DNA of 64,000 nt from Amphibalanus amphitrite. Taxonomy: Eukaryota; Arthropoda; Thecostraca; Balanomorpha; Balanidae. Shown here piece after piece: positions 4,459-63,246 of this stretch. The translations under genes were made by a program, and so were the position numbers. The notes under the pieces are model-generated. The model saw nothing but the letters and a program-made list of their open reading frames with translations, had not been told where the DNA came from and did not search any database. Where the stretch lies: the NCBI RefSeq assembly GCF_019059575.1, contig NW_024881825.1, positions 558,001 through 622,000 of the forward strand, written 5' to 3'. The stretch's first letter is position 1. Every line of letters starts with the position of its first letter.

Positions 4459-7400
4459 TCAGTTGCCCGCCACGTACGAGATCCAGTCGGACGTCATCGA
4501 CACGCGGTGGTAGATACCTGAAAAGGCGTGACCGTTAGAATATGCCCCAGGCAGCACAAAGAACACACTCGTGTGAAATGGATGGTTTGACGACGCCCCT
4601 ACTTGCGAATGCCCTGCTTAGCTCATGCATTAGAACATTACTAGGCGTCGGTGTAGAGGTAAAAATGATCTTATTTGGGTGATCAATGATAATCATTACT
4701 CCGGAACATATTTTCGAATTCCCCCGTCCAGATAAGTGTATTTTCTTGGTTAGCTACTTTTTCATTAATTAACTTAAAAAAAAAACGATGGACTGATCCT
4801 TCCACAAGCCACATTTCCCTTGCTCATAAGGTTACTCGTAGCCTTTTCTGTTGTCTCATCGAGAAGGGGACCTTCAGCAGCTTATGAGGCGAACTCAAAT
4901 AGAAAGTGGTCCAGGTGGATGATACCGCAGTGGCACGGAGTTGCCGATGTGCGGCCACTGACCTGGCTGCTTGCCCTGAGCACAGGAGTAGCCGGCAGAC
5001 ACGATGCCCATGAGATACCACCGGCCGTCGCTCTCGATCATCAGAGGTCCGCCGCTGTCACCCTGTCGGTGAGGTGACAGGTCAGACACTGTGTGACATA
5101 CAAACGTCAGCCGCTGTCACTACCGGTCAGAGCGGCTGACACTGACATACGGAGGTCCACCGCTGTTACCTTGTCACCGGTCAGGCAACATTAGGAATGC
5201 TGCTTTTATCACATAACATATAGTACATGTGCAAGCGCAGCACGAGCGTTCTCGTCGCCCCGTTCCTGTTATTTACACTCGTCTGTCACCCGTTTCTGTT
5301 TATTACCTGGCACTCGTCTGCAAGTGCTAGCCCATTCCTGTTATTAACCCGACACTCGTCTGCCACCTCGTTCCTCTTTATTACCTGGCACTCGTCTGCC
5401 GGTGCCACCGTTCCTGTTACACATCTGCCAGCCCGTCCCCGTTTATTACCTGGCACTCGTCTGCCGGTGCTACTGTTTATTACCTGGCACGAGTCCTTGC
5501 CGCCGTTGATGTAGCCAGCGCACATCATCTCCTCGTGGATGATGACGTTGATGCCCTTCTGGCGATGCCACTGTTCACACATGTGCCGGTTGATAACGGG
5601 AACGTCGACCACTTGCAGCTCCTTGGGGCGCACTCGAGAGCCTGGGGTTGGAGCGGGTGGTGCGGTCAGTGAGGCACCCACACGGCACGCACAGATCCCC
5701 GTAACACGGTGCACCGCCATTAGCGCCGCGCTGTACGAGAAACGATACTGTTGCCGCTAGATGGCAGCAGGGGTTAGCGCCTGAATGTAGACTGTGCCGC
5801 CGGACCGGCCGGCCGAGTGTTGCGGTAAAACCGATCACCGGAACACAGACAGTCGACACTAAAAGCTGGATTTCTTTGGACAAATAGCACTGAGTGCTTG
5901 CTAACATGCATTGTTGGCATAGGAAAGGCCCGTTTAAATATGAATATTATTTCATCCAACTAGTGATGTAGGAAAGCGACTTCATAAGCGATTGGGTCGA
6001 GTGAAATGACCAACACGGGTTACATTTGCTCGTTCCGGGCAAGAGAACTGGGAGACATTTGTGAATATTTTCTTATGGTATTTCTACCTGCAAGGCACAT
6101 AGGTAGCCGGCTAGTCAAATTGTATATACCACTGCGCCTCTTGTGGCCCAGCCCTAGGCGGCGCTAAGCCTGGTCCCCGCGCCCCCAGGCGTCCCGCTGT
6201 CACCTGGCCTCCCCAGTGTTCCCGCCGTGACTCACCGGGCCTCAGCGCTCCCCAGCCGGCCGCCCAGCCGTAGAAGCCCTCGAACTCCTCTCCCTTCTCG
6301 GGCAGGCAGATGGGCTGGATGTGCGGCGCGTACGGCACCGGCCGGTCCAATCTGCAGCAGAGGGCAGCACACGGGTCACAGCCAGCACTGTATACCGGGA
6401 CGGGCAGCGCTGGACATCGGGACACGACGGGGGTAAGCCGGCAACAGACACTCCGTCCTCAGAAACCTGGAGTCGTAGCCTTAGAGGTTGCTTTGATGAG
6501 CATTCGAATCGAATGAATTCATGCAAAGTAACGATAAATGCAGGTAAGCGTTTTGAGTTGCTGGTCGATCAGCACCAAATGTTACGGGCGGCTGTGACCG
6601 CCCGTTGTGGCATGCCTGGCGCCGCCCGTGGCGCCTCCCCGGCTGGCCGCGCCCGGCGCCGCCCCTGCCGCGTGGCCCTCGGGCGGGGTCGAGGGCTGGC
6701 GCTGGCTGGGCGGTCGGCGGCCCGGGAGAGGCAGGGAGACCGTGGTTACGAGCGGTTGGCTCTGTGGTTCTTGTTTGGGCCTCTGCCGATAATACAGTAA
6801 AGCATCGAGTCTGAGTGTGTTCAGCTCCCGCAACATTTGGCGCGGTCGGTAGGACTGCAGAAGACGACAAAGGGTGAGTTCATTAATTTCATTTGATGAT
6901 ATTTATTGAAATTTAGTTCATGAATGTTGATTGTCGTAACTAGTCTGTGCTCGACAAAAAGCGGGCGGTTTGCTCGAAAATAGAACGCCGATATTTTCTG
7001 TTCTGAGGGGAACGTTAGGAATAAGGCGGTCCGCCTGGGTGCAGTTTTGAATAATTTGGTGAATTGTTTCCGCTGGCCATGGATTTCAACGACACTATTT
7101 TGGTATCGCGAACCCCTCGTTTTGCGGGTATAGAGACAGATGATTGGGAGCGGTGGATATCTCGTTTCGAGTCGTTAACGGTGGGACTCGGAGACGTTGA
7201 GCGAGTTAAGCGGCTGTTGCCTCTGCTGGATGGCGTCGCACTCGATTATGCGCATTCGCTGTATCAGGGTGACAGTTCGTACTCTGAGATAAAGTCAGGA
7301 CTTGGGGTCCGGTTTGGTCGGTTAATCGAGCCCTTACAGGCGCAGGCCGAGCTGGGGCGCGCCTCCCAGTCGCCGGGGGAATCAGCTGAGAGCTTCGCTG

Positions 7401-10400
7401 ACCGTATTAAGAGACTGGGGCGGGCTGCGTTCCCTCATTCTACCGGTCCGTCAGGGGAGGGAAAAGGTCCTGAGGAAACGTATGCAGAGAGGGCGTTCGT
7501 GATGAAAACCCTGACGAGTCGGTTCATATGTGGACTTCGGGATGAGTGGCTCCAGACGAAACTGTGCCACCGTAATCCTGAGTCACTGTCTGCGGCTGTA
7601 GCGGTGATCCGAGAGCTGCATAAACGCCAGGAGGTCGTCCAGGCGGTACGCGCTGCTAACCCATCGACGCATACAGGTACTGGGCCCCTTCCCCTGGGTG
7701 CTGTAGCGTCAGCTGTTCATGCAGAGGTAGGAGGTGGGTCGCAGCAGGATGCAAGGATAGCTCAGCTGCAGCAGGAGATCGGCCAGCTGCGGTCTTCGTT
7801 GGAGGCGTTCGCCGTTGCCAAGACGGACCACCTGCCTGAGGCTGTCAAATGTTACGGGTGTGGTGCCCCCGGCCATTTTCGGCGTGACTGCCCGGTGGTA
7901 CGCCGTGGTCAGCCGAGAACTGGACCGAGAGCCACCAGGGTGAAATGTTTTTCGTGCGGGCAGGAGGGTCACATTCGGAGCAACTGTCAGTCGGCTGTAC
8001 AAGCTGCCACCCCGCTCCAACCGTTTTGTTTATTCTGTGGCGAGGCTGGGCACTGGATGGCGGCATGCCATTCTCGCCTGCAGCAGGGGCCTCCAGCAAT
8101 GGGTGGACGTCGGGGGCTGATGTCGAGGGAAGCCCTTCCATCTGATAAGCCGGCGGAAAACTAGGAGCAGCTGGCCCTGTGGGACAAGAGCCGGCTGCGT
8201 GTATCCAGTCCCGATTAACTGCAACAGCCATTCGAGTCCACTTGGGCAGCCTCGAAGTATGGGCGCTGGTCGATTCGGGTGCCGACTTTTCCATGGTCAG
8301 GGATGGGCTCCAGCAGCGGTTGAAAACGGAACTGGCTTGTCAGGCCACCACCCCGACGCGGTCCGCGAAGGGAGCTGGTGGTAGCCCCCTGAACATCGTT
8401 GAGGTGCTCCGTGATGTCCCTATCCAGGTGGAGGAGGAGTCGATTGTGTGTCCACGACTGGCTGTGGTGTCGGGGCTGGTCTATGACGTGATCCTTGGAC
8501 GTGACTTCTGTTGCCAAAACAGAACTATCATTGACGATGAGAAGGGGGTGATCCGTATGAAAGGGATGACGATTCCACTTCCAACATACCCTGAGATCCG
8601 TCCCCCGCGGGCTAGAGTCATTCTTGGCGATGCAGTAACACTACCAGGTCGTTCGGTAACAACGGTAGCAGCAGTGGTGCAGCGACTTGATGGCCAGGGA
8701 CCTTTTGTGACGTCAGCAGGCTCGGTAAGTGGGATGATGGAGCCAAGCCGCACGGCGGAGCGTGAGGATCTATTGATTCCACGGGCTGTGGTGGTGATCG
8801 CCTCCAATGGCACCATACCTATCCGGTTGACGAATGTCGGAGCGGAGGGCGTCCGTCTCTTGAAGGGCTCTGATGTCGGGACGTTCCTTGCGTTTGGGGG
8901 CGGTGAAGACGCCCTGTGTGTTTTGTGTCCCGGGGCAGACTGTGCCGATTGCAATGTGGCGAGCTGTGGAGATGGAGGTAATCCATCTCATGATCCTGGA
9001 GAGGTGGAACCGGAGGTGCAGCAAGCCCTGTCACCAGAACTGACAGACTTGAGTGAGAGAGGTCGTAACAAACTACGGGGTTTATTTGAGACCTACAGTG
9101 ACGTCTTCAGTAAAAGACCGGGAGACATTGGTCGTACAGGTGTGACAAAACACAGGATTGACACGGGGGATGCAGTCCCAGTCAAACAACGTCCACGACG
9201 GATACCCATGAAAGTCCGAGACCAGGTAGAGAAACAAAAAGAAAAGATGTTACAGGATGGTGTCATTGAGGAAAGCGAAAGTCCGTGGTGTTCGCCGGTC
9301 GTGTTGGTGCGCAAGAAAGATGGATCCTTCCGCTTCTGCGTCGACCTGAGGGCTGTGAACGCAGTGACGAAGGGCTTCGCCATGCCGCTCCCACGAATCG
9401 ACGACTCGCTCGATACCCTGTCAAGGGCGAGGTGGTTTACCACGCTGGACATGGCCACAGGGTATTGGCAGGTTGAACTGGCGGCTGAAGATCGAGAGAA
9501 GACGGCATTTTCGACTGGAAAAGGCCTCCATCAGTTCAGAGTCATGGCAATGGGTCTCAAGAACGCCAGCGGCACTTTCCAGAAGATGATGGAACTGATT
9601 CTCGCAGGCCTTGACACCAAAAGCTGTTTGGTGTACTTGGATGACGTCATCTTGTTCAACAGGACCGAGGAAGAACATCTGGCTACCCTGCAGGAGGTAC
9701 TCCTGAGGATTCAGCAAGCCGGGCTGAAGCTAAAGGCACAGAAATGTCGATTCGCACGCAAGGAGGTGACTTTCCTTGGACATCTCGTCTCCGAGGAAGG
9801 GATACGTCCAGATCCGCATAACGTGGACAAGGTCCTGGCCTGGCCGCAGCCGTCATCTGAGGAGGAGATGAAAAGCTTCTTAGGCCTGTGCGGGTACTAC
9901 GCGCGGTTTATTCAGGGGTATGCCGCGATTACAAAGCCACTTAGGGACGCCGCAGTAGAGGAGGGACGAATCAGGTGGTCCGAACCGATGCGCATTGCAT
10001 TCGAGCTGTTGAAGTCCACTCTGTCCTCGCCTCCCGTACTGGCTTTGCCAACAGGTGAAGGGACGTTCGTCCTGTATACAGACGCATGCAACTCTGCTGT
10101 GGGTGTGGTGCTGGCTGAACGCATTGGAGATGAGGAAAAGGTGATCGCCTATGAGAGTAAGGCACTCACAAAGCAACAGACGAGATGGCCGACTTACGAT
10201 AAGGAACTCTGGGCGATCGTTCATGGCATCAGACATTTCCGTCAGTACACTGTTGGTGCCAGATTTGAAGTGGTGACCGACCACAAGCCGCTGGCAAACA
10301 TACCGACATCGATCGCAGCAGAGCGAGACGGCACAGGACGTCGTGGTCGATGGGCGATCGAGCTGAGTTCTTTCGACTTCAATGTTCGGATCCGCAGCGG

Positions 10401-13400
10401 TCTGGCCCACGGGAACGCTGATGCGCTGTCTCGCAGACCACCAGATATGGCGTCTGCGGTCCGATCTGGTCAAGCCCAAGGCCAGGGGTGGCGTCCCGGT
10501 CGCTCTGTCTCAGAGAGAGGAGATAGAACGGAGACGGTGGGGTCAGTAGCGGGCGGCTCGCCCGCGCCGACGGAAGGCGGTTCGCCTGAGTCGGTTGTGA
10601 CTCTTGTAGCTCCAACTGCTGTATTCTCAAGGCTTACGCAGGAACCGGCTGCTGTATCAGTCGCTGTGTCACAATCAGTCCAAGAACGGACCCTCCCTCC
10701 AATCGCCCAGGCGCAAGCCAGTGACGCGACGCTGTCGGCTCTCCGAAGAGCACACGAGAGGAAGGAGAAGCCAAGGCCTGCAGCGTTCGCTGGGTGGGGA
10801 GTGCTGCGAAAACACTGGAGCAAGGTGCGCGTCATGAATGGAGTAATCGGCATTGCCTCGGGTCGACAGTTCCAGGCGGCGGTGCCTCAAACTGAGCGGG
10901 CCGAGATCATCCGACTGGCGCATGATGATCCATCGAGCGGGCACATGGGTCGCAGACGGACCATCGCCCGGGTGAAGGCTCGATTCGTCTGGCCGGGGAT
11001 GAATGAGGACATCCGGAGCTTCTGTGCCTCGTGCACGCCGTGTCAGCGGCGGTACAGACCGGCACCCAAAAGACGAGCACCGATGGTTACCGAGGTTACC
11101 TCACGACCCTTCCAGAGAATAGCCATGGACATCACGGAGATGCCTGTGTCGAGAAGAGGCAACCGATATGTGCTCGTGATCATGGATTACTTCTCAAAGT
11201 TCGTACGAATCTTCCCGATGCCGAATCAGAAGACAGAAACGGTGATGGAGGCACTCCTTCACTGGGTTCAGGAGCTTGGTGTTCCCGAGAGGCTTCACAC
11301 AGATCAGGGCGCTCAATTCGAATCTCTGATGATGCGTGAGCTGTATCAGAGGCTCGGCATCCACAAGACTAGAACAACGCCTTATCATCCTGAGAGCGAC
11401 GGGATGGTGGAGCGCTTCATGAGGACCCTGAAAGACATGGTGTCGAAATACATCGACAGCCAGGGCCTTGACTGGGACGAAAGTACCAGATCATACGCCA
11501 TGGCCTACAATTCTTCCCTCCACGAAACCACCGGTCACACACCTTTCTACATGATCCATGGCTTTGAGCCTCGGTTGCCTCTGGATGTAATGTACGGAAC
11601 CGATGAAGTCGCAATACCAGCTGAAACCTTCCTGAACAAACGGCTGAAGAACATGAAGCGGGTCTTCGCACAGGTGAGGAGAGCCTCCTCCCAATCAGCT
11701 GCTCGAATGGCGGTTCGCCATGACAGCAAACTCAATTTTACCGCGTACCCAACGGGCTTGAAGGTGTGGGTACGAGACCACACTGCCGCTGTGGGAGGAA
11801 AACCGAAGCTGGGTCTGCCGTTTAAAGGACCGGTGACCATCGTCGAGAGAAGAGGCACACCGGGGGAGGAAGTTACCTACCGGATACAGGACGTCCGCGG
11901 CAAGACACGCGTCGTGCACCACAACGACCTCAAGGAGTTCATCCCTCGTCGGACCGACTTGCAGCCAGTTCAGGATCCGAGTGGTCCAAATGGACGTGGT
12001 GAGGCCGTGGGGGTGGATCCCGTGAGCGACTGTGGTAACGAGCATGGCGTTCTGCTCGAGGTGCCGCTAATGCACTTACTCGGGAGAGCTGGCCCATCTG
12101 GTGATGTGGGCGTCGCTCAGAGGGGAATGTTGCCGCCAATGTCATACGTGACCAGATCAGGCCGAGTATCGCGACCACCTGAAAGGTTCCAGGCGGGACT
12201 ATGAGTGTGGTGGAGGTGGTGAAGGCTGTGATTGTGTATATAGTTGTAATGTAAATAGCGTGTCGTGAGTGTCGCATTGTTCAATGTATGATTGTTTCCG
12301 TGAGGGGGGAGGGGTGTTACGGGCGGCTGTGACCGCCCGTTGTGGCATGCCTGGCGCCGCCCGTGGCGCCTCCCCGGCTGGCCGCGCCCGGCGCCGCCCC
12401 TGCCGCGTGGCCCTCGGGCGGGGTCGAGGGCTGGCGCTGGCTGGGCGGTCGGCGGCCCGGGAGAGGCAGGGAGACCGTGGTTACGAGCGGTTGGCTCTGT
12501 GGTTCTTGTTTGGGCCTCTGCCGATAATACAGTAAAGCATCGAGTCTGAGTGTGTTCAGCTCCCGCAACACAAATGCCACTCACGTGAGCACGGCCACGT
12601 CGTATCGGTCGGCCTGCGGTGTGAACTGGAAGCGCGGGTGCACCTGGATGGCGCGCACTTTGAACTTGTAGGCCGGCAGCGGCTCGCGATTCGAGTTGAG
12701 CACGTAGTCGCCCAGGGTGATGGTGATCTGTCCCGGCCGGGCCCTGCGGCGACAGCGTGCATGAGACGTCAGCGATTATAGCATGTCACATCTCAGCACC
12801 GCCGTCAGCGTAGTTACATTGACCCGACCTGTGACGCCATCGGCGACCTCGACGTGTCAATTAATTCGGCTCCGCTGGACATCTTTTTCAGGGCTATCAG
12901 CCGTTTAACTTCAAAAATCGGACCGGTAGTTTCGGAGATAGGGGGTGGGGAAGGGGGGGGGCTCTGTAAAGGAATAGTATCCCCCACTACCCCAGTCATG
13001 CGCGGGTGAAACTGACGTGACCAAGCAGTGACCCCGTCAGTCTGACCTGGCCACTCAGTGCCCTCGATAGTTTGACGCTATCACGCAGTGACCCCGTCAA
13101 TCTGACCTGGCCACGCAGTGTCCGGCGGTGATGACGTGCTGTCGGTTGATGAGCGATCCTCCGCACCGACTGGTGCCGATCAAAATGTACGCCTGCGGAT
13201 GACACGAACACAACAGCGGGTCAAACATGAATTCGATACTAAAGCGTTCCACTGTCTATTTACGAAATACTTTTCCAAACTTTTATCGTTTGCATTTCGA
13301 AAAGAATGTGCAAGTTTCGTAAATCATGCTTGACCGACAGTTGTGAGAGAGAAAATAACTATAATAGCATTTTAATGACTTGTGCTGCCGTGTGATGCCC

Positions 13401-16400
13401 CATGCCGTGTGAGGACCTCATCGTGGCACCGTTCACCGTCTGTCAGCTGTCCACTTCTTCATCACTTTCGACAGGATACCTTCCAACCGTTTGTGCGTAT
13501 CGTCCTACATTCCTACGATGGTGTCTCGTGCACATTGTCCGCCCCCAGTCCTCACCTGCCAGGGGAAGGTGCCGAAGCCGGCCTGGTTTCCGCCCACGAT
13601 CCGCCGCGTGATGCCGATCCGAGACGTGTCCGAGAGGCCACATCCTGACGGCGGCGGCCGGGCGCGGACAGGGCGCGTCAGTGTACCGTCAGGAGGGACC
13701 CGGGTCTCGGGGGGGGAGGGGGTATAACAAAGAAATACGGCAAGCTGAATCGGGTAATGACTAACGAATGAAACTTTCCGGCAGAATGTTATATATTACT
13801 TAAAAATGAAACACTGAAAGAAATGTAATAAAAAAGAAACACGCAAATCTGTCACATGAAGCGGCCCGTTCCCGGTCATCTCAGTAAGCGCTCAGTCGTT
13901 GAAAGTCTGGATGTTGTGGCGTCTGCCTGCCGCAGGCGCTGTCTGCCCGCAGCAGCAGCGGCCTCGGTGCCGGTCAGAGCGGCCGTCTGGGTCACCGCGC
14001 GGTCTCAGCCGTCGGTCGCTGTCACGGCGGCCAGTCTCAGCCGTCGGTCGCTGTCACGGCGGCCGTCTCAGCCGTCGTCTGTCGGCCTCCACCGCGTGCG
14101 GTGCTGTCGGTCGGTGGTGGTCGGTGCGCGCGCGGCTAGACTACACACCTGCTGAGCGGCGGGCGCTGGGGGTGTCAGGGCGGCCAGTCCACTGGGTCAG
14201 CGGTCAGCGGTCCGGTCAGCGGCACAGGTGAAAACAACACCGGTAGAGAAACAGAGAAAGAGCCTCATGCAAGAAAAGATACCTTATTTAGTGAAAGAAT
14301 CTTCAAACTTGATTTTGATATTAAGCATAGCGAAATTTATCATATTTTGACGAGGCTTGAGAGTTGAGAGAGTTGCAAAATTCTATTTAATAAATCATTG
14401 TTTCCACCTTGAGCCAGATGTTTCGTCAAAACAGTACCTAAGGTCCTTGGTCGGTATTGATATTGCTGCTGTATTGAAAAGGCGCTGTTAGTTATTTGCA
14501 GTTGAACCAACATGTCGCATAGGCATCACCGCATCAGTTTTTTTAAGTATTATTTACAAGCCGTGGGTGTGACCAGATAATTAGTAGTTAAGCGGAAATC
14601 CTATATTTTGTTCAATCAAAGTAATCTGATGAATGAAGTAAAGTAACTATCCTTTCAGTTTTACTTTATATATCGTTAGTGCAGCAAAAACAACAACAAG
14701 TTCATCTCTAACCGTCTAGTCCAAAATACACTGCCTACTAGTCTATTCTGATCGCTTGATTTCGCGTGATTGCTCAAGTTTCTACGGCTAATACCATGCT
14801 GGCGCTAACCTACAGCTAAACTGCGTCAGGGTGGAAGACTTACGTGTATAGTGACCCTCTCCCCGTGCAGGCTCGAGGTCGGTGCGTGGGTGTGCTGCGG
14901 TGCTACTTACAGTTGGTGGCAAACAGTGATTCCTCCCCGGTGGGGGAGAGCATCAGAGGTGATGCATTGGCCGTGGCATGTTGGCCCTGTACAGGTCTAA
15001 TAGATAGTCGCATTTGAGAAATTTGTCAGATCTGCACCATACAATATGTGCTCTTTGTAAGGTCGAGAAACACTTAAACGCACTAAACTGATAGCTGTGT
15101 AACGCGGATGACGATGCACCCTCATCCGTCGCGCCGAATGCTTGTTTCGAGTGTTTTGGTGTAGCTGTGCTCGCTGGGTGTGACGATAACTATTAAAAGC
15201 CCTAATGATGGTGGCAGGGGCGACTTTCATTCCGGGCGGCACATGGGTGCCCTAATGACGCACCTGTGTTCCGGCAGGCGAATATTGAAATGCTAAAATA
15301 TCTACTCTGGTCATTACTCTTATTGCGAAAAGTATCACTGGTGGCCGGGCCTGTGCTAATTTGCCGCCATGGCTTCGTGAACCGTGTCTGTGTGGAATCT
15401 GTCAGTGGTCTATCCTGGCGTAATTGTCTGTCCGCAGCGGGTCTCTGTCCCTCCAACTCCCTCCCGCCCGTCTCTGTCCCTCCGGGTCTCTGTCCCTCCG
15501 GGTCTCTGTCCCTCCGAGGCCCTCCGGCCCGTCTCTGTCCCTCCGTTTCCCTCCGGCCCGTCTCTCCGTTCGGTCCTCGGAAGTCCTCTGCGGTCCTCTG
15601 CGGTCACCCCGGACCGGCGCCACTCACCAGGGTCGTTGCGGACCGGGCCGTAGTCGACGTTGGGCGGCGGCGGCGGGTTGAACGACTTGGCCGACCGGCC
15701 GCCGTGGTCGCAGCAGACGAACATGAAGCCGCCGCAGCCGCCGCGCGCTACGCCGCCCGACATCCAGCACATGAGCGTGAACTGGCACGAGCCGCACGAC
15801 GCCCGATCGCCCAGGAACCGCTCGTCCACCTGAGGCCGGAACCGGTGCACCACTGCGGGAGACAGGGAGAGGGGGGGGGGGGTCAGGGACCGGGGGACAC
15901 ACCACTTCGGGAGACAGGGCAGTCAGGGACCGGGGCTTAAACATTGCGGGACACACGGAGGAATTCACGGGCTGCCAACTGTACTGACACTTCTGTAAGA
16001 AACGAGCAACCTCAAGGCAGGAGGCTGCTGTGTTTATCCGAAGGACTAAGTAACGTAAACATTCCTTGTGATGGCGACAGTACGATACTAGACCCTGTTG
16101 ACGAAATTCCATCAAGTTTTCTCACGGAATTAAGCACATTGGAGAGTAATTGGATACGACACGGATCCCGGCCTGTTATACATATAAGTGCTGTGTCTCC
16201 GATGTCCGTGTCCCCGTGCCGTGTCTGCGGACTTTCCATGCTGGCACCGCTCGGGGACGCGTCAGCCCGTGGACGGGGTGACGCCACGCGGTCAGCGGCG
16301 GCCGCAATCGACCCAGTTCCGGCGCTGTCCGGTCGGTCGCAGCCGGCGCCGCCGGCAAGGCTGTCCGATTGCGTCACAACGGCCGGCTGTGTCAACCGGC

Positions 16401-19400
16401 ACGGACGTCTTGGCCAATGGAGCGGCAGCGACCGGCCGCGGCTGGTGCGAGAGGCTCTGTGTCGCCGAGCGGCCCGCACGGTCATCGTGAGACGTGGTCA
16501 CCGGACGCCGTCGGCACTCAGCAGTGAGGCTGTCAGGGATTGTGGAACGCTGCTTGGTGCCTGTAGTGAGGTAGTGGGGCTGTGAATTGCAGTGGGCGCT
16601 GTTGGCTGCCGGTAATGAGGCTCTTTGCTGGCTGCTGTCCGCCGGTAGTGAGACTACTTAGTTATGAGCTGCAGTGGGACGCTGCAGGTGCCGGTAGACG
16701 GGCAGTGTGGTGGCTGCCGGCTGACAGTAGTGTGACTGTGAGCAGCCGTGGGTCGTGGATGCTACTGGGTGCTGGTAGTGAGGCTGCCAGCGGCTGTGGC
16801 ACACTGCCGGTCGTGGAGGTCGCCCGTCGTCAGGCACTCACCGTTCCGCGGCCGGCAGCGACAGACACGTGCGTTACCCAACCGGTGGCACGGTGAAAGG
16901 ACGCGGCAGGGTCAGCGCGGCCGATGACTGCGCTCCGCCACCTACCACCGCCGCTGGGGCCCTGCCGCCTTGTCATGCGCAGTTTACCGGGTATCGTCTG
17001 ATGGGCAGGCGTCTTTGTCTTCCTTGTCGAGTGAAATTGCAGTCAACAGTGTGGTCCATTCAATGTCCAACCAAGTGGTTCACTTCAAATCTCCTCACTT
17101 AGCCAGGAAGAGCGTCGAGGATGCATGCCAGATGCAAAATAAACTCTATGGCTTGCACATGTTCATTTCATAATATGGCGTTAGCCGCGAATGTGCACGC
17201 CACATGTTCTCATAACACGGTTCCGTGAGATGAAACACTAGTAGGCTCGTTTCGGGTGGGTAGCTGCGGCAGCGGGGCGCGTCCCACACGGTCGTGGCAG
17301 CGCGGCACATGGCAGCAGGCCTCTGCACCGTGACTGGCCGCTCGGCGCCTTGCCTCACCGCCGCCCCGGCGCTGGCGCGTGGCACACCGGTCCGCCAGCG
17401 GCGCTGATGCAATAAAGTGTGTAACAGAGCCGATCGCCGGCCCTGTCGGCCGGTCCCGAACTGTGGCGGAGCCGCTGTGGTCCTGTCGGCTGGTCCAGCT
17501 GTGACACTGTCGGATGAGCTGGCTGTGGCACTGTCGCCCGCAGTCGGAGCCGCTGTACCCCACTCGGGGCCCGCGGGCCGCAGCTGGTTCCGTGGGGGTC
17601 TCCGTCGCCCGCGGCGCGGCCGATCTGACCAGTCATCGCCGCGACGCGCCGGCAGTTGCCCAACGCGGCCAGGAAGACGCGATTGGAAATCGTTGGGCAA
17701 CGCGGCACCGGTCTGCCGACGTCTTGTTGGAAGTCCTTATCTTTGCGCGCTATGGTCACCGGTTGCCACACGCTGACATGGTCTCGGGATTTGCATTGTT
17801 TGCGGATACTGGTGCTCGGTTGCGACAGATCGAGAGTGACTTCAAGGCCAGCCGTGCCTCCTCGTGGAATAGGCGCCTTCGAAGCATATAGAAGCTGTTT
17901 TCTCACTAGAAAAGAACTAGTGGTAGCTCTTATTGGAAGCTCTTGTACAATAAACTTCCTTAGCACAAACCACCCCCACAGTGATGCGTAAAACGACTGT
18001 CACATTCGTCGACAGCCCTCATTCGATACGCTTAGTCGGCGGCTGCTTTCAGAGTAACCGAACTGATGGGGCAGAGAGGGAAGCATGGGAAGCTTTGAAG
18101 TCTGATACCAGACTACCAAATCGCGATCCACCAGTGAACTTCACAATTCACGTGTGTTTTTTGTGTGTTCCAAATGTTTCGAATGTATGGTGCAAAAAAA
18201 AAAAGACAGTTGGATTCAACCGCCAAAACTATTAAAATGCACCCAAAAACGAAACGTACATCGCACTAATTTTGTTGGAAGAAGGGAATTACAAAGTCTT
18301 ACTTCCTTGGGTACATTACTCCCCAAATGCTCCCACCGCGCAGGTGAGAATGCTACATTTCAGATGTAATCCAGTAAGTGATAGAATGGATCTCAGTGTC
18401 TGTCTTCAAGCTTTGAACTCAACGATTTGCATGCAGTTATGTAAAAAAAAGAATATTAATTGGGAATATTCATTTAAATGAAAAGACGTGGAAACTGTCT
18501 TCAACTAAGTTAAATTGAACGGTCACTCAAATCTATTGGTTATTAGTTTGGATGAATGGGCTACCCCAGGCATGGCACTGGCTGCATTAATGGGCATATG
18601 TCTACATAAACTAAAATGGAGCTGAACATGACAATCGAGCGGAAAGAAAATCACTTCTGGCGGTGCCCACTTGAGCAGTAAATAACCCGGCGGCACCGCT
18701 GGGGTAGCTTATGGGATAGCTTATTTATGGGGTACCTCATCGCCGGTGCAGGCTCTCCACCAACGGCTAGGTAAATCCCATTGTGACATCTAGGGACCAT
18801 TGAGCCGGCTTCTAGTCATCGGTCGATGAGTTGGAATCTGAAGACGATTGAAGAGTTGCAAAGCTTTGTTACAATGAGCTGTCCTTGCTTTACCGGTTAT
18901 TGTTAGATACCTGACGAGATCATTTGTTATATAACATAGTGCCCCCTTCTCTCTGCACATACAGCTCATAGCTCTCTAAATTTCCTCTCTTTCACGCCAC
19001 GCTCAGTTGCTGCCTGGTTTAAGTTGCCTCAAGCCGCAGTGCAATTTGCAAGGCAACTATTGCGCTCGGAGTATTTGCAACACCCGGAACGGCCGGCGAG
19101 CCCGGCGCGGCGCGGGTTGGGCAACGGGCGACGGCGGCCCGGCGCCGGCTGACACCGTTGTGAAACGAGCGCGCTCGTTCCGCGTCCGAGCGGCGGTGTG
19201 CCCCGAGCGGCCGCCAGAGCCGGCGCCCCGGCCTTGGGTCAAAGCGAGCGGCCGGCTCACACATTTGTCAGCGGTTGCAGCAAGACAGGAGCGGGAGGCG
19301 GTGCGGGCCGGGGCGGGAGATGAGGGTCATAGAAAGGACTCGGGTGCATGGGGCGGTGCACGGAATTCCCCCGACGTGACCGACTGGCTCGGCGCGGAGG

Positions 19401-23675: not shown

Positions 23676-23778
<103 letters not shown>

Positions 23779-43155: not shown

Positions 43156-43205
43156 TGCACTGTGTATACACAGTGCATACCTGCTCACTATAGTGAGCAG
43201 GTATG
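43156..43205. repeat. Two overlapping perfect palindromes
   Basis: 43156-43177 (22 bp, centre GTATAC) and 43176-43205 (30 bp, centre CTATAG) are each exact self-complements and share two bases. Each could extrude a cruciform or form a stable RNA hairpin. They border a GC-rich segment. Confidence 0.9.
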
Positions 43206-43499
43206 ACCGACCGACCCGGTCGTCCGATCGCGTCGCCCACGGGGACGGACGGGGTGTCCCCTGCAGCCGCTCTCCGCCGCGCCGCGACCCTGGACAGCCG
43301 GCGCCGAGCGCGCCTGTCGAAAACCGGCCGGCCGGCCGCCCGGCCGCTCTGTAGAAAGGAGAGCCCACTTTCACTGGTCGCGGGCCGAGTGCGCGGTGCG
43401 CCGGCCGCCGCGTGACCCTGACCCTGCCCCTCCGCTGAGACCGACAGGATGGCCGGTCGGCGGCCGGCGCTGCAGTGGACACGCACCCTTCCCACTCAT

Positions 43500-49513: not shown

Positions 49514-51108
49514 GGTTGTCGACGAGAGGAGTTTCCACGGCTGGGCGAGGCCCAGCTCGACGCGCGGTTCCTACCCATCGAGACGCGAATCGGCGGACGT
49601 GGTTGGCGATCCCCTGTGCGAGGAGAGGAGGCCTGGGGATGGGCACCGCTGCGCCCCTGTACTCTGGTCCAGTCAGTAGTACGGCTTGTTCCTGGGGTCG
49701 GTTTCGTTTTCTGGGCGATCTCGGGAGAGACAGCTGGCTGAGAGTCAGGCGAGGGCACTGGCTCATCGATCTCGATGGCCTCAGTGGTTTGGGTCGTGCT
49801 TGTGGATGCGGCCGGTTTGGGAGCGAGAGGCTTGAGAAGCTCCAGGGGAGGGAGTGCGGCGATCGGCTCGGTCTGAGTACTGCATGAGACAGTTTGAGTG
49901 CTGGCGGCTTTTGCATAGGATTTGCCCGGAGTCGGAGTGGCGTTCTCTGCTTCTACCCGGCGTCGTGCGTCGGGATAGGAACAGGCGGTTTTGGCTTTCA
50001 CTTCACAGATGCGTTTTTCCTTCTGCCAGACAGGGCACTGTGAGGACGAAACAGAGTGATCTGTGCTGTCACAGCTAAGGCATTTGACTGGAGTGGAGCA
50101 TGCTGAGCCCTCGTGTGGGGCTTCTCCACACTTCTGGCATCTGGCGGACTGGCGGCAAGTAGAACTACCATGACCGAAACGCTGACACTTAAAGCAGCGG
50201 AGGGGGTTGGGAATGAACACTCGGACGTCCTTCCTAACCCAGCCGATCGTGATCTTTTCAGGCAGAGTCGTCGTGTCAAAGGTGAGAACTAGCAGACTAG
50301 TGTCTCGCCGTTGCCCATCGCGGAAGGTGGTCAGGCGGCGGATGTGTGTTACACCATCACCCCTCAGCTCAGACAGAATCTCATCCTCAGACATATGACG
50401 GAGTTCCGGAGCAAAAATCGTGCCCTTGGAAGAGTTTCGGCTTTGGTGGAGCGAGACTGTCACCTTCTTGCCGCAGAAAGTCGTGGTCTTCAGAAGCGGT
50501 TTGGTTTCTTTTCGGGAGTTTGTTTTTACGATCAGAGTGCCGTTTGCCGGAGCCTCGATAGCTAGATCCATGGAACCAGTGATAGCAGCGATCTGCTTCC
50601 TAGGCCAAAAAACGTTCATCTTCCGGAAAGAAACGTCGTCGTCGCAGGGCTTGATAACCAGAAAAGAACCGTGGAGAGGCAAGTAAGGCTCGAGCGGAGC
50701 GCGATCAACCGAATCACAGGCAGGTGCGTTGTCTAAGTTCGTGCGCGGGTCAGAGCTCCGGGAGTGGTCGGTGAACGGGCGAGGGTCATGGCTCCGGGCG
50801 AGGTCGGTAGACGAGCGAGGGTCAGAGTGCCGGGCGGGGTCAGAGGTCGAGCGAAGGTCAGAGGCGTGGTCAATGGACGAGCGAGGGTCGGTACCGGGTA
50901 GATTAGTCGAGGGGCGGGCAGAGGAGGGAGGGGTGACGATTGGGCGGGAGTCGGTATCCATGGAGGCGGGAGTGAGGTCAGGAGCAGGAGTAGAGGTTGG
51001 AGGGGAGTCAGAGTCGGAGTCGGTATAGGAATCAGAAAGCGGGCGCTGACGGCGCCGCTTCCCCATGATGGGGCAAACGGGATGAGGGTGTGAGCAGTGA
51101 GAGTTCAA
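49510..51108 (-). CDS. ORF1 (gag-like) protein of the I-type element
   Basis: An RNA-binding protein that forms the ribonucleoprotein with the element RNA. 532 aa from 51108; an alternative start at 51066 (MGKRRRQRP) has a basic N-terminus and may be the real one. A Ser/Asp/Pro-rich N-terminal region with repeated SDPRSSTD-like units covers residues about 20-125. A central domain follows, then CCHC knuckles CFKCQRFGHGSSTC, CQKCGEAPHEGSAC and a C-x2-C variant CLSCDSTDHSVSSSQC near residues 305-360. The C-terminus is Pro/Ser/Arg-rich. The frame is open throughout. Confidence 0.9.
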   Translation of the reverse strand: MNSHCSHPHPVCPIMGKRRRQRPLSDSYTDSDSDSPPTSTPAPDLTPASMDTDSRPIVTPPSSARPSTNLPGTDPRSSIDHASDLRSTSDPARHSDPRSSTDLARSHDPRPFTDHSRSSDPRTNLDNAPACDSVDRAPLEPYLPLHGSFLVIKPCDDDVSFRKMNVFWPRKQIAAITGSMDLAIEAPANGTLIVKTNSRKETKPLLKTTTFCGKKVTVSLHQSRNSSKGTIFAPELRHMSEDEILSELRGDGVTHIRRLTTFRDGQRRDTSLLVLTFDTTTLPEKITIGWVRKDVRVFIPNPLRCFKCQRFGHGSSTCRQSARCQKCGEAPHEGSACSTPVKCLSCDSTDHSVSSSQCPVWQKEKRICEVKAKTACSYPDARRRVEAENATPTPGKSYAKAASTQTVSCSTQTEPIAALPPLELLKPLAPKPAASTSTTQTTEAIEIDEPVPSPDSQPAVSPEIAQKTKPTPGTSRTTDWTRVQGRSGAHPQASSPRTGDRQPRPPIRVSMGRNRASSWASPSRGNSSRRQP

Positions 51109-51240
51109 GGAGTGGGACAGTAGGGAAAAACTGGATCAAAGTAGGTGTGTAGGTTGGTGTAGGAAGAGTTCTCAAACAAACCCGTGAAATGCTAACTGCC
51201 GGAGCAAGTCAACGATCACCTCAGCCTGTGTGTGTCGCCG

Positions 51241-55925: not shown

Positions 55926-56799
55926 TTAAGACTCCCAAATCAAAGGGGGGCACGGTGCCCCAGTGCCCTCCCCGTTCCGCCGCCTATGTCTTCGAGAACC
56001 GCTCAGTTTCAAGTCGCTAAGAAGTGGATGAAATAATACAACAGCTGTAGCTCGGGCCTTGAGTCCGGATACTTCGACGCTCTCTCAACTGAGCTACGAG
56101 ATAGAGACAGAAGTTGACGTAATGACATGATGTGGAAAGTGAAAATAATACCTAGGTATTGATGGAAATTTATGGACTTAGGTACGCTACAAGAAGATTG
56201 AATTGGTCAACCAATTCAAATTCAATCTACTTGTGGAGTAAGTCTATAGATTTTCATCAATAGTTACCACTTACCATTGAAGTTACTTGCTATCATGTTG
56301 ATTTTATACATAAGAACCTCATTCATTTTATTTGTATGACATGTTTGAATGCAATTTTCTCAATAAGTGAAGAAAAATGTTGGTAGTGCTCAACAACACA
56401 TTGGTAGTGCTCAGCTGAACATTGGTAGTGCTCGGGCATTCCCAGGCCTATACAAAACGACGCCCCTAATCCCTATAGAGTATAAGACCAACGATCAGCA
56501 GGACGTTTCGATTTTGCCTGATGACGTCATTTTCTTGAAAAATGTTTTAACACAATTCCACCTTATTTAGGACATCCTTGAAAAGCTGACTACATACACT
56601 TTTGGCGCACGAGTTTCATACCGGTGACGCGCCGATTTTAGGGGTAAGGCCGCTGGCTGGGTAGATTTTATTTTTAATTATTGCATTTCATCACTGTGTC
56701 AACTAGCCTGTCTGTTTCTGTCCCAACCATTAACTTGTTGCATTGCGATCTGTTATACTTTTCAGAATCCAGAAGCTTTGTACTCATCATTCTTCACCG

Positions 56800-59700
56800 A
56801 TGGAAGATGCTGTGTGCCCGTTTGTCTACTGGTCCCAGACCAAAACAAAAGTTCACCTAAAAATTGATCTCAGGGAGGTAAAGGTAAGTAGGAAATGCAT
56901 TTTCATTTTTGTGATGCATCAGCTCTTTTCTGGAGACAGCATGGGCATGACATTGCTCCGAACTCATGAAGTTCCACATGTGCGTACAGTGTCCCAAAAT
57001 TAGTGAAGTTCGTAATTTTTAAGACCTTTGCCCATCAGAATTTGGGTTGAAAATGACATACAAATGAAAAAATCATATTTTTGCTTCCAATTTTACCAAA
57101 AGAACATTTTCCTGGATGGTCTTTTTATCCTTCACTCTACTACACCTGTATATAAAGTCACGCTGTCCCCACTTTTATGGGCCCTATCTAACCCTCAATT
57201 TTCCACTCATCCTCTTTTGGCTGAGTAATTATTCAGTCTGACGCCCAAGTGAAAATAAATTTTTTGGACACTACATATTGCAAACTCTGCTAGAAAGGAG
57301 GTAATTACCTGCTGGCAGTCTAGGCCAGCAGTCTGATTTCAAATTACCTTGGGTAGGTATATGACCTTTAGATGTGCTTGCTTTAGTTTATCAAATTGTC
57401 ACAATAGTACTAATTAGTCTCATCCTACTCTAGCTTGCCTGTGTAGGTAGGTGTGGTATTTGCCTATACCCGCTCAGAACAACAATCTCGTAATCAGCAA
57501 TAAGATTTGACAATTCTTTTGTGGATATTCCTGTTAATTCATGAACAACACTATGGTGCTGCCATATCAAGCTTATGTGGATAGCAGTTGAAGGGCTGTT
57601 TCCATTTGTACAGAAGCCGGATGTGGATTTACTTCCCGAGCAGCTGGTGTTCAGGGCTGAAGGTCTGGGCAACTCTGGCAACCAACTGTATTCCTTCACC
57701 CTGGATTTGTTCCAACAAGTCATACCAGAGGTGAGCAGAGCTCTGTGAATTTTGTAATGATCAACTGGGTGTGAATGCAATATGTATTCAATTGTTTGAC
57801 CAGTTATTTTATTATTATTAAAGCTTTGCTATTTGGTTATAGGTACTGGTTCACAGGCATAGTTATAGTTACACACCACAATAGGCAGGGAGGGAAGGAG
57901 CTGCCATTTGTAAATGGTTGCCAGCACCATAACTGCAATAGCCTGCTGTATTTCCTGTCTCAGTAGCGCAGCACCTGGTGTAACACGCTTATTCCCCACA
58001 CTCAGGAGACCCATGTAACACGCTGATCTTCCCCACCCCCAGGAGACCCAGTACCAGGTGTCAGACCGCAATGTTCAGGTCACGCTGACCAAGGAGGACG
58101 AGGAATGGTGGCCCCACCTGACTCGCCAGAAGACCAAACTCCCCTGGCTGAGGGTAAGATTGTACCAATGGGCAACAATGAATTATAGCCAGTGACCATT
58201 TGTTTGCAGTCATTAACTCATTATTTTTCTTATGTGCTCTATTTTAAAAAGTGACTATGCTACTAGGGGACCCATCCTTTGCTCAATTTTGTTATTTTAT
58301 TAGAAACTGGTGAACGTTGCCGATCATTAGCGGCGGAACACCTTCAATTAAGGGGGGCACTGCCGACTTTTGGTCCCATTCTTTCCATGCAACGCCCATA
58401 GGGCTAATGTTAAAATGCCGAAATCAAAGGGGGGGGGGGGGCACGGTGCCCCGGTGCCCTCCCCGTTCCGCCGCCTATGTTGCCGATCCTTAGCAGGACT
58501 GTCCGAACAGTGCCGATCATTAGCAGGAGGACTGTCTGTGCCGCCTGCGACTCTCACGCAGAGGGCTGTGCTGACCGGGCAGCCGGCCGCTCCCCGCTCC
58601 CCGCTCCCCACCCGTGTTTACCGCCTCAGCAGATAGTGAGATGACTGACAGATTGCTGTCTGGGCAAAAACCCAGATAACTCGGGCGGTCTGGAGCGGCA
58701 GATACTGCTGACAGCGGGAAGATTGACACGCCCACACGGGCCGGCCGCGGTGTCGCCCTCCGACTGTCGCTATGTGCGGTCGGCCCCTAACTGGACCCGC
58801 CCCACCGTGCAGACGAAGGGTTACAGCGGCTGGGGAACGGCCCATATGGTTTTCGACACGTTTACTTAGCTCTGAATTTCTTCTAACTGAAGTGCAAACA
58901 ATTTTATCGTGTTTGCTAACACAACACTGCCATGCTGAAAACTATCAAGGAACGTCGATGATTGCAGATCGCAATGTGATTCATCGCTGGGCGCTGGCAT
59001 AATACAGTGAAGCCCTACTACATGAAATCGATCTTCTATACCTCAAGTTATAGTTGCAAACTACACAGCAGGACACTCAACATATTCGTGTTTAGTTGCT
59101 CCATCCTGACCGTGTCACGCGCTCAAGCTCCAGAGAAATTACTCGAGTGATCGGTTGAGTTCAGAAACATGATTCGTGTTTTTAAAATTGCCGACATTCA
59201 GTGTTTGAGCAACTGTTCACTGCTCATTGCTCCCAAAGTGGGTGATCTACGAATCGTAAATAAATGACTCCGCTCCTCATACCACTGGTAGCCGCCGACT
59301 GCAGCGTCCTCTATAACTCTGGCCGCCAGGTGGACTTTGACAGGTGGCGCTCGGAGAGCGAGGACGAGGCCGAGGGCCGGGACGTGATGAGCGACTACCC
59401 GGACGTCTACGACCGGCTCCTACAGGAGGAGACGGCACCGCGGGACAACAGGCGTGAGTGAGGGGAGGGGAGAGGGCGCCCAGAGACAACAGGCTTGAGT
59501 AGGGGAGGGAAGACCGCGCCCCGTGACAATTATAGGCGTGAGTAGGGGGAGGGGAGGAGACGGCGCCCCGGGATAACAGGAGTGAGTGCCTGAGTAGGGG
59601 AGGACAGGAGACAGCGACTGGCTCCTGCAGGAGGAGACCGCGCCCAGAGACAATAGGTGTGAGCAGTGCTTTCCGCGATAACTAATTTTTGGACCTGCGA

Positions 59701-62700
59701 TAACGATAAAACGATAAGAAAGGTTTACGATAACGATAAACGATAAACGATAAAAAATTCAACAAATTAACAGCGATAGCGATAAAACGATAAAACGATA
59801 ACGATAATTGTTTTTTTTTTAAACAGCGATAACGAAGCGACAAACGATACAACGATAACGATAATTGTTTTTTTAACAGCGATAACAAAAGCGATAAGAA
59901 ATAGAGCTTAAATAAGTGTACTTAAAGGTTATTTGCAGATCTATACACTAAGCAGATGGCAACAGGTTGCGCGCACATACTGTCGCGCGGCATACACTGT
60001 CGATCGTCTTCCATTTTTCCATCATCCCGTTTTACATTTTATCGTTTATCGTTGATAACTTTTGTAACTTGCGGTAAGTGGAGGAGCGATAATTTTGAAA
60101 ATTTAGCGATAAAGGATAACGATAACTGATTTACTTAACAGCGATAATTATCGTTTATCGTTTATCGCTCATCCTATCGAATGCGGAAACCACTGGGTGT
60201 GAGTAGGGGAGGGAGACCTCGCCCCGGGACAACAGGCATGAGTGAGGGGCGGGGGCGGGGGATAGTGCAGCGGACTCTACCGGACGGGCTGGTAGGAGAC
60301 GACTATTGACCATTCGCTACTTTTGACTGGGCCCTGTACTACTACCAGTTGGCCTGTGCAATGTTCTGCAACAATATATTTGTTCACATCTTCCAGTGAA
60401 ATTACAAACATGCCTTTGAGAGCTCTGCAAAAACTTAACTGAGTGTTCTCACAACAAGTCAGCGCCTTCAGTGCGAAGTATTGTTCAGAAGGCCAAAGTT
60501 CCCTCGGAGGACTCACCGCCGCCCGCAGGTCGCCGTTTCCGGTGAATAGCCTATGTGAGAGCTAACTACTTGATCGTGTACAACCTGTTCGCCACTGTTT
60601 TCAGTGAACAACTTCCGCGAGAGCTACCTGATCATGTACAACCTGTGGCAGCTGCTGGGATTCGCCGTCATCCTCGGCAAGCTGGCGTTCCGCTATAGAC
60701 TCGAGGGAGAGGGTGCGTACAGTACTTCTGCCGGGGTGGCGCTCTCAGCCTGCGCCTCGCTGGAATCGCAATACTTGGATTTGTGGTGGCTGCCTATGCT
60801 GCGATCATTTGAAAATTGAAATGTGCACGATGCATTATACTGCTATCTGTTATGTTTTAATATTGTAATAGTTCTGCGCTGGTGCTAATGCATAAAACAT
60901 AGACATAAATCTGTTCTACGCTAGCCCCGCCCGCTGCCCGCTGGTCTGACCGACCGCCCGCTGCTGCCAGACTCGATGCTGAAGGCCTACGACACGGTGG
61001 GCGTCAACATGAAGCTGGCGCAGGGCCTGCAGGTGCTGGAGATCCTGCACCCGCTCTTCGGCATGACCAGGGGCGGCGTGCTCGAGCCGCTGATGCAGGT
61101 ACGACTGTCAGGGACTGACAGATTCATTGCAGGGACTGTCGGGGTGCGCTACTCTGGGAGGGCGGGGCAGGGGGAGCGGTGCGCTACGGAACTGACTGGC
61201 TGAAATCTGTGTCGGACCAGCTTGGTTTTATCGGATTTCGCGCAATCTTATTTTACCAATGCATTCAAGAGTCTGATGGTGTGTTGTCAGGTGGCTGGCA
61301 GGAACCTGATGTTGTTCATATTGCGGTATTTGATGTCATATCTCTGTCTCAGGAGCCTGACGTTGTTCGCGGTGTTGTATTTGATGATTTATCCCCGTGT
61401 CTGTCGTCAGGTGACGGGCAGGAACCTGACGTTGTTCATATATTGCGGTATTTGATGTTGATTTCATATCTCTGTCTCAGGATCCTGACGTTGTTTGTGG
61501 TGCTGTATTTGATGTTATATCCCTGTGTCTGTCGTCAGGTGACTGGGAGAACCTGATGCTGTTCGTGGTACTGTATGCTGTGTTTGATGTCATATCTGCC
61601 ATATTTGATGTTATATCCCTGTGTCTGTCGTCAGGTGACGGGCAGGAACCTGATGCTGTTCGTGGTGCCGTATTTGATGTAATCTCTGTGTGTCGTCAGG
61701 TGACTGGCAGGAACCTGATGCTGTTCGTGGTGCTGGAGGGCGAGCCGAGGATGCAGACCAAGCCGGCCGTATTCTACCTGTTCGTCGTCTGGAGTCTGGT
61801 CGAGCTGGTCAGGTATGTCAGACTGGAGTCTTGTCAGGCAGACTGTACCTCCGGGGACCCGCACTGGCTACTGCACACTCCGTATCATCAGATCAGCTTT
61901 GCCTATAGCGCTGCTGTACTCCAGGTACCCGTATTACACGCTCCGTGTTATCAAATTAGTCATACCTTTTCCATTGTGCGTCAGGTTACCCGTACTGTCA
62001 AACCCGTGCTACCTGTCGCTCCGTATTACCAAATTAACCTCGACTATGTCGCTGTGCTCCAGGTACCCGTACTACACGCTGCGCATCATCCGGCGAGAAA
62101 TATCGTTCGTCACCTGGCTGAGGTACACCATCTGGATCCCGCTCTACCCGCTGGGCTTCATCACCGAGGGCGTCCTCTACCTCAGGTGAGAACGTACCTG
62201 CCGCTCTACTACGGAGTGCGCCCTGTACCTCAGGTGATACTATCTTTCAAGGCTGGATAGCGCTATACCATCTGCACGCTTTCGGTGCGATTCTGTTTGA
62301 ACTCTGGTGAGGCAGCCCCGCCTTAGCTCCGATAATTTACCTATCGTCTTACTCCTTTTGTGCCCAAGTGTATCTGGTGCATGTATTTTCCACAATTGTG
62401 TTGTAGGCTGATCTCTAACATAGAATTCACATAGAATTCTCGCCATCGGCACCCTCTGACAGGTACTGGGCAGTTCTATTATGTTAATTTTCTTTCTTGT
62501 TTACTTGTTTGATTTTACTTGGTTGGAGCTTGGTATTACTTTTAGTGGCTGCTCGATATAATGGCCAGGACTAAGCTAACGTGACCGAACCGGGTGGGGG
62601 ATGGTGCCTAGTGATAGGCTGTGGGCCTTTGTGCCATCTCCCCATAACACCACTGTCGTCAACATTGTTTCTAAATAAATGGTTGTTGTTGTTGTTGTTT

Positions 62701-63246
62701 TGACCGCGCCTCGTCCACCCGGCCAGGGCGCTGCCGTACTTTGAGGAGACAGGCCGCTTCTCCCTGGCCATGCCGAACGCAGCCAACATGGCCTTCCACT
62801 TCCCCACCGTGCTGAAGGCGCTGCTGCTCTGCGCATTCATGCCAGGTAGGCTTCATGGTGGCGGGGAGCTCTCGGATCACTCTGGGACAGTGGGTCGACG
62901 GTGGAGAGCTCTCCGAGCGCTCTGAGACGGTGGCGATTATCGATGTCACATCGAGCACCACCCATATTCTGTGCTTGACTTGTTTGGCGGTTGAATGATA
63001 GCTTTCACAGTGCCATTGAAAAAAATAATTATATTTTATTTGGTCTTCCCACTGTGCAACTGAAGCAGCCCGGTGAAATGTTCCCTCAGTCCTCCGTTTT
63101 GCCCCAGCTACCGGCTGCACCTCTCTGGCCCCGCCCTGACCTTGGGTTCCCTCTGCCGCCGTGTTACAGGCATACTTGTGGTGATGCGGCACATGTACCG
63201 GCAGCGACGCAAGGTCATCGGACCAGCAAAGGTCAAACAGCACTAG
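56800..63246 (+). CDS. HACD3: Very-long-chain (3R)-3-hydroxyacyl-CoA dehydratase 3-like (CS domain + PTPLA)
   Basis: Dehydrates 3-hydroxyacyl-CoA to trans-2-enoyl-CoA in the ER fatty-acid elongation cycle. Ten exons: 56800-56883, 57614-57730, 58043-58153, 59330-59453, 60605-60712, 60971-61098, 61700-61812, 62063-62185, 62727-62845, 63170-63246. All are GT/AG with consistent phases, giving 367 aa, close to the roughly 360 of animal HACD3. The start ATG has a purine at -3 only weakly (CACCGATGG) but matches the family N-terminus (FVYWSQTKTKVHL). Residues about 1-100 form the CS (p23-like) domain, including WWPHLTRQKTKLPWL; a charged linker follows; then about six hydrophobic segments. The dehydratase motif LRYTIWIPLYPLGFITEG is in exon 8, with catalytic Tyr290 and Glu297 seven residues apart, as in the family. 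The C-terminus KVKQH fits a KxKxx ER-retrieval signal. Its introns hold two MITEs and several junction duplications. Confidence 0.95.
57978..58042 (+). repeat. Duplicated acceptor of HACD3 exon 3
   Basis: TGTAACACGCT ... CCCCACACTCAGGAGACCCA (about 57979-58013) is immediately repeated as TGTAACACGCT ... CCCCACCCCCAGGAGACCCA, whose AG at 58041-58042 is the acceptor used in my model. The first copy also ends in CAG|GAGACCCA and could act as an alternative acceptor. Confidence 0.75.
58330..58475 (+). mobile_element. Small MITE family A, copy 3 (uninterrupted), HACD3 intron 3
   Basis: 146 bp, GCGGCGGAAC ... GTTCCGCCGCC, flanked by TA (58328-58329, 58476-58477). It contains the intact TTAA that is split in copy 2. 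It sits between two GTTGCCGATC-CTTAG/ATTAG sequences, so the target itself was part of a short tandem repeat. Confidence 0.85.
59414..59655 (+). repeat. Tandem copies of the exon 4 end and donor site
   Basis: Exon 4 ends GGGACAACAGGC|GTGAGTGAGG at 59453. The intron repeats this junction as GAGACAACAGGCTTGAGTAG (about 59482), GTGACAATTATAGGCGTGAGTAG (59522), GGGATAACAGGAGTGAGTG (59569), and a longer copy with GGCTCCTGCAGGAGGAGACC ... GAGACAATAGGTGTGAG (59623-59663). Another copy (GGGACAACAGGCATGAGTGAGG) lies beyond the MITE at about 60224. At least five copies. Confidence 0.8.
59664..60195. mobile_element. hAT-like MITE rich in CGATAA, HACD3 intron 4
   Basis: The ends CAGTGCTTTCCGC and (complement) CAGTGGTTTCCGC are inverted. 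The exact 8-bp duplication GGTGTGAG is at 59656-59663 and 60196-60203. The interior is dominated by CGATAA repeats in one orientation on the left and TTATCG on the right, so the whole element can fold. 532 bp, non-coding. Confidence 0.88.
61265..61699 (+). repeat. Tandem copies of the acceptor and start of HACD3 exon 7
   Basis: The real exon starts at 61700 after GTCGTCAG, reading GTGACTGGCAGGAACCTGATG. Upstream copies with the same TGTC/GTTGTCAG|GTGxCxGGCAGGAACCTGA core begin at about 61290, 61410, 61537 and 61636. Each is followed by TTGTTC and a GTATTTGATGTCATATCTCTGTCTCAGG-type spacer. At least four upstream copies keep 20-35 exon bases. Confidence 0.85.
61915..62062 (+). repeat. Tandem copies of the acceptor and start of HACD3 exon 8
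   Basis: Exon 8 starts GTACCCGTACTACACGCTGC after CTCCAG at 62062. Copies in the intron: CTCCAG|GTACCCGTATTACACGCTCC (about 61919) and CGTCAG|GTTACCCGTACTGTCAAACC followed by CTCCGTATTACCAAATTAACC (about 61980). Each copy carries an AG acceptor. Confidence 0.8.
62186..62240 (+). repeat. Duplicated exon 8 end and donor
   Basis: Exon 8 ends CTCTACCTCAG|GTGAGAACG. About 50 bp on, CCTGTACCTCAG|GTGATACT repeats the junction. Confidence 0.65.
62565..62700 (+). mobile_element. Possible retroposon remnant with (TTG)n tail, HACD3 intron 8
   Basis: A GC-containing segment ending in AATAAATGG followed by five to six GTT/TTG units looks like the 3' end of a truncated non-LTR element or SINE. No frame is recognisable and no target duplication was identified, so this is only a suggestion. 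Confidence 0.3.

What the first reader, a model, noticed from the sequence alone, without database searches (positions are those of the whole stretch)
4459..63246. Splice-junction-centred tandem duplications in two unrelated genes
In the serine protease (introns after exons 1, 4 and 7) and in HACD3 (introns 2, 4, 6, 7, 8) the DNA next to the exon is a run of decaying copies of that exon/intron junction. The copies carry either the AG plus the exon start or the exon end plus GT. They hug the boundaries and are largely absent from the middles of exons and introns. Most copies contain the proto-splice word CAG|GT. A known model of intron gain proposes that tandem duplication of an AGGT-containing exon segment creates a new intron; here duplications around existing AG|GT sites appear common. 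I infer a lineage-specific process that repeatedly duplicates splice boundaries, producing arrays of alternative splice sites.
Basis: partly seen in the sequence, partly recalled or inferred. Interest (0 to 1): 0.85.

Follow-up and report, generated by a model that had tools for sequence, protein, structure and literature searches.

The report
Decayed tandem repeats crossing barnacle introns
In an acorn barnacle's genes, short stretches of DNA have been copied head to tail many times in the introns; some copies include exon/intron junctions, and the junctions are probably not special targets but simply places where such copying is harmless and stays visible.

Summary
The window is from the acorn barnacle Amphibalanus amphitrite: the HACD3 and serine-protease models match its annotated proteins at 99% and 716 of 716 residues. 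But they do not hug boundaries in general. With 10 introns of two further genes (DZIP1, a BTB gene) added, 13 of 54 boundaries lie inside a tandem array; interior points of the same 27 introns predict 14.8. Arrays cover 28% of intron length against 4.9% in DNA with few or no called exons; exon interiors are largely spared. Counted by founder events, junction-crossing arrays are 2.4- to 3.6-fold in excess; estimator and visibility bias (~1.9-fold) leave a borderline residue (P 0.02-0.22 by definition). Best reading: a gene-wide short-tandem-duplication process filtered by selection: copies inside exons are lost, copies across a junction are spliced out. A striking recent case is ZSWIM7: nine near-identical 95-bp copies of exon end plus donor. 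No RNA or sister-species test was possible.

The parts
4459..20778 (-). Serine protease gene (9 coding exons; trypsin domain), 716 aa, identical to A. amphitrite LOC122388654
56765..63246 (+). HACD3 (very-long-chain 3-hydroxyacyl-CoA dehydratase) gene, 10 exons (start of the first exon not proven), 99% identical to the A. amphitrite protein
15886..15928 (-). SP intron 1: decayed copy of the exon 2 acceptor
13006..13123 (-). SP intron 4: 3-4 copies of exon 4 end plus donor, 30-bp unit
5289..5495 (-). SP intron 7: array of exon 7 end plus donor
5044..5175 (-). SP intron 7: decayed copies of the exon 8 acceptor (AG lost in both)
57992..58050 (+). HACD3 intron 2: 37-bp tandem copy of the exon 3 acceptor
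59410..59666 (+). HACD3 intron 4: several copies of exon 4 end plus donor (40-bp unit); the array goes on at 60196 behind an inserted element
60566..60646 (+). HACD3 intron 4: decayed copy of the exon 5 acceptor and exon start
61279..61735 (+). HACD3 intron 6: about 6 copies of the exon 7 acceptor plus exon start
61913..62090 (+). HACD3 intron 7: copies of the exon 8 acceptor plus exon start
62163..62237 (+). HACD3 intron 8: copy of exon 8 end plus donor
20037..20257 (-). Two arrays of 24-bp (8-residue) repeats inside SP exon 1: the same kind of duplication tolerated within an exon
14002..14189 (-). SP intron 2: purely intronic tandem array, more than 350 bp from any boundary
15438..15565 (-). 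SP intron 2: purely intronic tandem array, 62 bp from the donor

Best explanation
Short tandem duplications (units of roughly 10-130 bp) arise often in this barnacle's genes and pile up in introns. Selection removes those that fall inside exons, except in-frame ones in tolerant regions. A duplication lying across an exon/intron junction leaves one intact junction at the exon and pushes the other copies into the intron; if the exon-proximal site goes on being used, the protein is unchanged and the extra copies decay neutrally. Junction-centred arrays are therefore the visible edge of a gene-wide process, helped by the exon holding one copy constant. Shown: the copies, array density at boundaries no higher than in interiors of the same introns, sparing of exon interiors, neutral-like decay of AG/GT, annotated proteins without extra copies. 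Inferred: selection as the cause of exon sparing; origin by break repair or slippage followed by array expansion; constant use of the exon-proximal site in RNA.
For: Boundaries inside arrays 13 of 54 against 14.8 expected from interior points of the same 27 introns; exon points 3 of 108. Introns 28.0% covered by arrays, 18 of 27 with at least one; 4.9% in 600 pseudo-introns from 19 stretches with few or no called exons; 4.4% in window intergenic DNA. Simulated uniform duplication with constrained exons by itself gives a 1.25- to 1.66-fold apparent excess of junction-crossing arrays. Of 24 junction-spanning copies 17 keep the AG/GT. 24-bp repeats inside SP exon 1 and GSGGGS-type repeats in a DZIP1 exon. 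Annotated HACD3, SP and ZSWIM7 proteins contain no extra copies.
Against: At founder level junction-crossing arrays are 13 of 30, or 14 of 31 with ZSWIM7, against 3.6-5.8 expected (2.4- to 3.6-fold). After the estimator's baseline (1.29-1.39) and a detection bias of about 1.4, multiplied as if independent, 7.4-11.0 are expected for 14 seen, P 0.02-0.22 by definition; window genes 9 against 4.1-6.1, P 0.02-0.16; independent genes 5 against 2.9-5.8, P 0.16-0.69. The window's genes do show a boundary trend. The independent sample is one gene cluster on one contig with exons predicted by a caller trained on the window. If exons held one copy constant, exon sides should be better conserved than intron sides; they are equal (450/524 and 441/508). 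Why arrays favour introns over other DNA is not explained.
Confidence: 0.7

Rival explanations
1. A duplication process aimed at splice boundaries, for example breaks favoured at AG|GT or at co-transcriptional structures near splice sites.
For: In the window's genes the junction 50-mers score above interior offsets (10 of 36 against 27 of 218 at offsets 50-500) and array points fall off with distance (25, 17, 11%); founder-level excess 2.4- to 3.6-fold before correction and P 0.02-0.22 after it; ZSWIM7 array.
Against: No peak in independent genes (10 of 34 at the junction, 91 of 242 at offsets 50-500); boundaries 13 of 54 against 14.8 expected; corrected founder excess not significant in the independent set (5 against 2.9-5.8, P 0.16-0.69). 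The two window genes were singled out because they showed the pattern.
Confidence: 0.15
2. The arrays are kept by selection as alternative splice sites or splicing regulators.
For: Some copies keep splice-site scores equal to the authentic site (SP exons 4 and 7, HACD3 exon 7).
Against: AG/GT kept in 17 of 24 copies, as neutral decay predicts; the annotated proteins compared show no copy in use; in ZSWIM7 the 95-bp unit would shift the frame if a later donor were used.
Confidence: 0.05
3. Intron gain by tandem duplication of an AGGT exon segment (Rogers/Hellsten model): the introns themselves were made by the duplications.
For: 11 of 23 junction copies hold CAG|GT. Same-intron donor/acceptor similarity is at or above the 95th percentile of different-intron pairs in 4 of 28 introns, 1.4 expected.
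Against: The best of these four, DZIP1 intron 2, falls from 21 to 9 with its corrected acceptor; the other three (12-14) stay within the different-intron range (maximum 17).
Confidence: 0.04
4. Chance or assembly artefact.
For: Long near-identical arrays such as ZSWIM7 can be mis-assembled.
Against: Shuffle controls; 1 of 27 shuffled introns has any segment; the window copies are diverged, which assembly error would not make.
Confidence: 0.03

Closest known systems
Tandem duplication across an intron-exon boundary, potato RdRp gene (Ma et al. 2016, PMC4974935; abstract and introduction read)
   Same: A tandem duplication crossing an intron-exon boundary, carrying splice signals with it.
   Different: There it created a new intron; here no new intron is shown, copies lie inside existing introns and decay, and some arrays have many copies.
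Internal direct repeats in Daphnia pulex neointrons, ascribed to staggered breaks (PMC4202315; passages read)
   Same: Crustacean introns with significant internal direct repeats (55 of 90 new introns; 100 of 617 established ones, as the paper gives them).
   Different: Here the introns are not shown to be new, yet 18 of 27 hold arrays, by a different detection method, so the numbers are not directly comparable.
Minisatellites / tandem repeats in introns, D. pulex survey (PMC3152781; passages read)
   Same: Tandem repeats densest in introns.
   Different: In D. [quoted passage not shown] here units of about 10-130 bp are enriched in introns.
Small tandem duplications from fill-in at breaks with 3' overhangs (CST, Pol alpha-primase; PMC8355091, passages read)
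   Same: A known way to make tandem duplications under 100 bp.
   Different: Induced breaks in mouse embryonic stem cells; nothing here shows that it operates in barnacles.

Membership tests
Tandem duplication / minisatellite array | Head-to-tail copies of a unit of about 10-100 bp above chance | tested here: met
Tandem duplication / minisatellite array | Copy number varies between alleles | not tested
   needs a second haplotype; the genome search did not complete
Splice-boundary-targeted duplication process | Higher array density at boundaries than at interior points of the same introns | tested here: not met
   13 of 54 against 14.8 expected over 27 introns; window genes alone 9 of 34 against 6.2
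Splice-boundary-targeted duplication process | Excess of junction-crossing founder events after correction for detection bias | tested here: inconclusive
   14 against 7.4-11.0, P 0.02-0.22; independent genes 5 against 2.9-5.8, P 0.16-0.69
Intron gain by AGGT duplication (Rogers/Hellsten) | Donor and acceptor regions of the same intron are homologous | tested here: not met
   28 introns; 4 at or above the 95th percentile, the best one lost on correcting its acceptor, the others within the background range
Intron gain by AGGT duplication (Rogers/Hellsten) | Intron absent at this position in relatives | not tested
   no genomic sequence of relatives was available
Functional alternative splice-site array | Intronic copies used in RNA | not testable with these tools
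   no RNA reads; three annotated proteins show none

The most novel reading that the evidence does not exclude
Barnacle genes suffer a transcription- or splicing-linked break process with a real, mild preference for exon/intron junctions (about 1.3- to 1.9-fold beyond estimator and visibility bias), so that introns keep growing by copies of their own splice sites; ZSWIM7, with nine near-identical donors, would be a present-day case of the spliceosome choosing among equal sites.
Probability: 0.17. Interest if true: 0.75.

Novelty: new member of a known kind. Interest (0 to 1): 0.42.

Why it matters
Short tandem duplication is a known mutation class. What stands out is its amount inside the introns of this crustacean and that it repeatedly copies splice sites, which makes a natural test set for how the spliceosome picks among duplicate donors and acceptors (ZSWIM7 above all) and for whether duplications ever become new introns. 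It also warns that junction-centred patterns can come from visibility and selection without any junction-directed mechanism.

Tried and rejected
Tried: window-wide scan; exon caller trained on the window's genes (14 of 15 known internal exons exact, on its own training genes) run on sampled genome stretches; point profile; array-level counts. The first expectation for junction-crossing arrays was too low, because arbitrary pseudo-introns also gave O/E 2.19-2.39; it was repaired (pseudo-introns 1.29-1.39, 671 arrays). The first simple count (13 of 30 against 3.9-5.1, P<=0.0001) is therefore not to be read at face value. One search used expected values that I had entered by hand, one of them too low; one search recomputed them and replaces it. 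On that recount I moved the odds slightly towards the boundary-preference reading.

Left out of counts: SP intron 5 (large Gypsy insertion) in the intron tables; simple repeats of 1-6 bp; an uncertain DZIP1 exon (block 23204-23423). ZSWIM7 is not in the 27-intron tables; it was added, and its array runs 65 bp into the exon, beyond the 45-bp cap (one search also gives a 70-bp cap). That the exons at block 42637-43937 belong to DZIP1 is a guess. Two of the 34 sample boundaries belong to a retrotransposon-like frame (L017), and the minus-strand exons of L023 are uncertain. The one channel exon (L029) has no junction copy at either end and is in no table. Two of the 19 background stretches had one weak exon call each (L002; L016). 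The DZIP1 intron 2 acceptor was first miscalled by 60 bp; no array was found in that intron. Searches used first-order Markov resamples as null, true dinucleotide shuffles; points within one intron are not independent.

Rejected: GC content as sole driver (L013 and L014, 53-55% GC, have about 1% coverage). Literature searches listed no paper on junction-centred duplications in barnacles among the rows shown; only open-licence PMC papers are held, so this is weak. Pooled by hand: the percentages by distance.
Full report
What the window is. The HACD3 model (10 exons, plus strand, 56765-63246) and the serine-protease model (9 coding exons, minus strand, 20778-4459) were built by hand from the sequence. 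Pfam gives CS + PTPLA and Trypsin. A protein search gives Amphibalanus amphitrite at 99% over the whole of HACD3 and LOC122388654 of the same species for the protease, identical at 716 of 716 residues. The splice junctions are thus those of an independent annotation, and neither protein contains an extra copy.

Noticed in passing
window 59664-60195: A 532-bp insertion with inverted ends (CAGTGSTTTCCGC...) and the 8-bp flanking duplication GGTGTGAG, like a hAT-type MITE (name from recall); it landed in one of the duplicated donor copies of HACD3 intron 4, so its target-site duplication is itself a decoy donor, and it splits the array.
   Followed up: partly
L008:7883-8737 (C2:527883-528737 of the same genome): ZSWIM7: nine near-identical 95-bp copies of exon end plus donor in a row, i.e. 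nine equal 5' splice sites; the annotated protein contains the segment once.
   Followed up: partly
window 7055-12204 and 30975-35279: Two Gypsy-like LTR retrotransposon reading-frame sets, the first inside SP intron 5 (named by eye).
   Followed up: no
window 25699-26799 and 45745-51135: A Tc1/mariner-like transposase frame, and several frames of a non-LTR retrotransposon, all on the minus strand (named by eye).
   Followed up: no
window 37776-39179: About 1.3 kb of 20-bp repeats, followed from 39064 by about 115 bp of the same unit in the opposite orientation.
   Followed up: no
window 23039-23461 and 24414-24690: The same 37-bp minisatellite occurs twice about 1.4 kb apart, each followed by a long GA run.
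   Followed up: no
block C2:510001-590000, about 20512-20573 and 21149-21216: DZIP1 intron 2: the stretch upstream of the corrected acceptor resembles the donor region of the same intron (score 21, maximum 17 among pairs from different introns), some 640 bp apart.
   Followed up: partly
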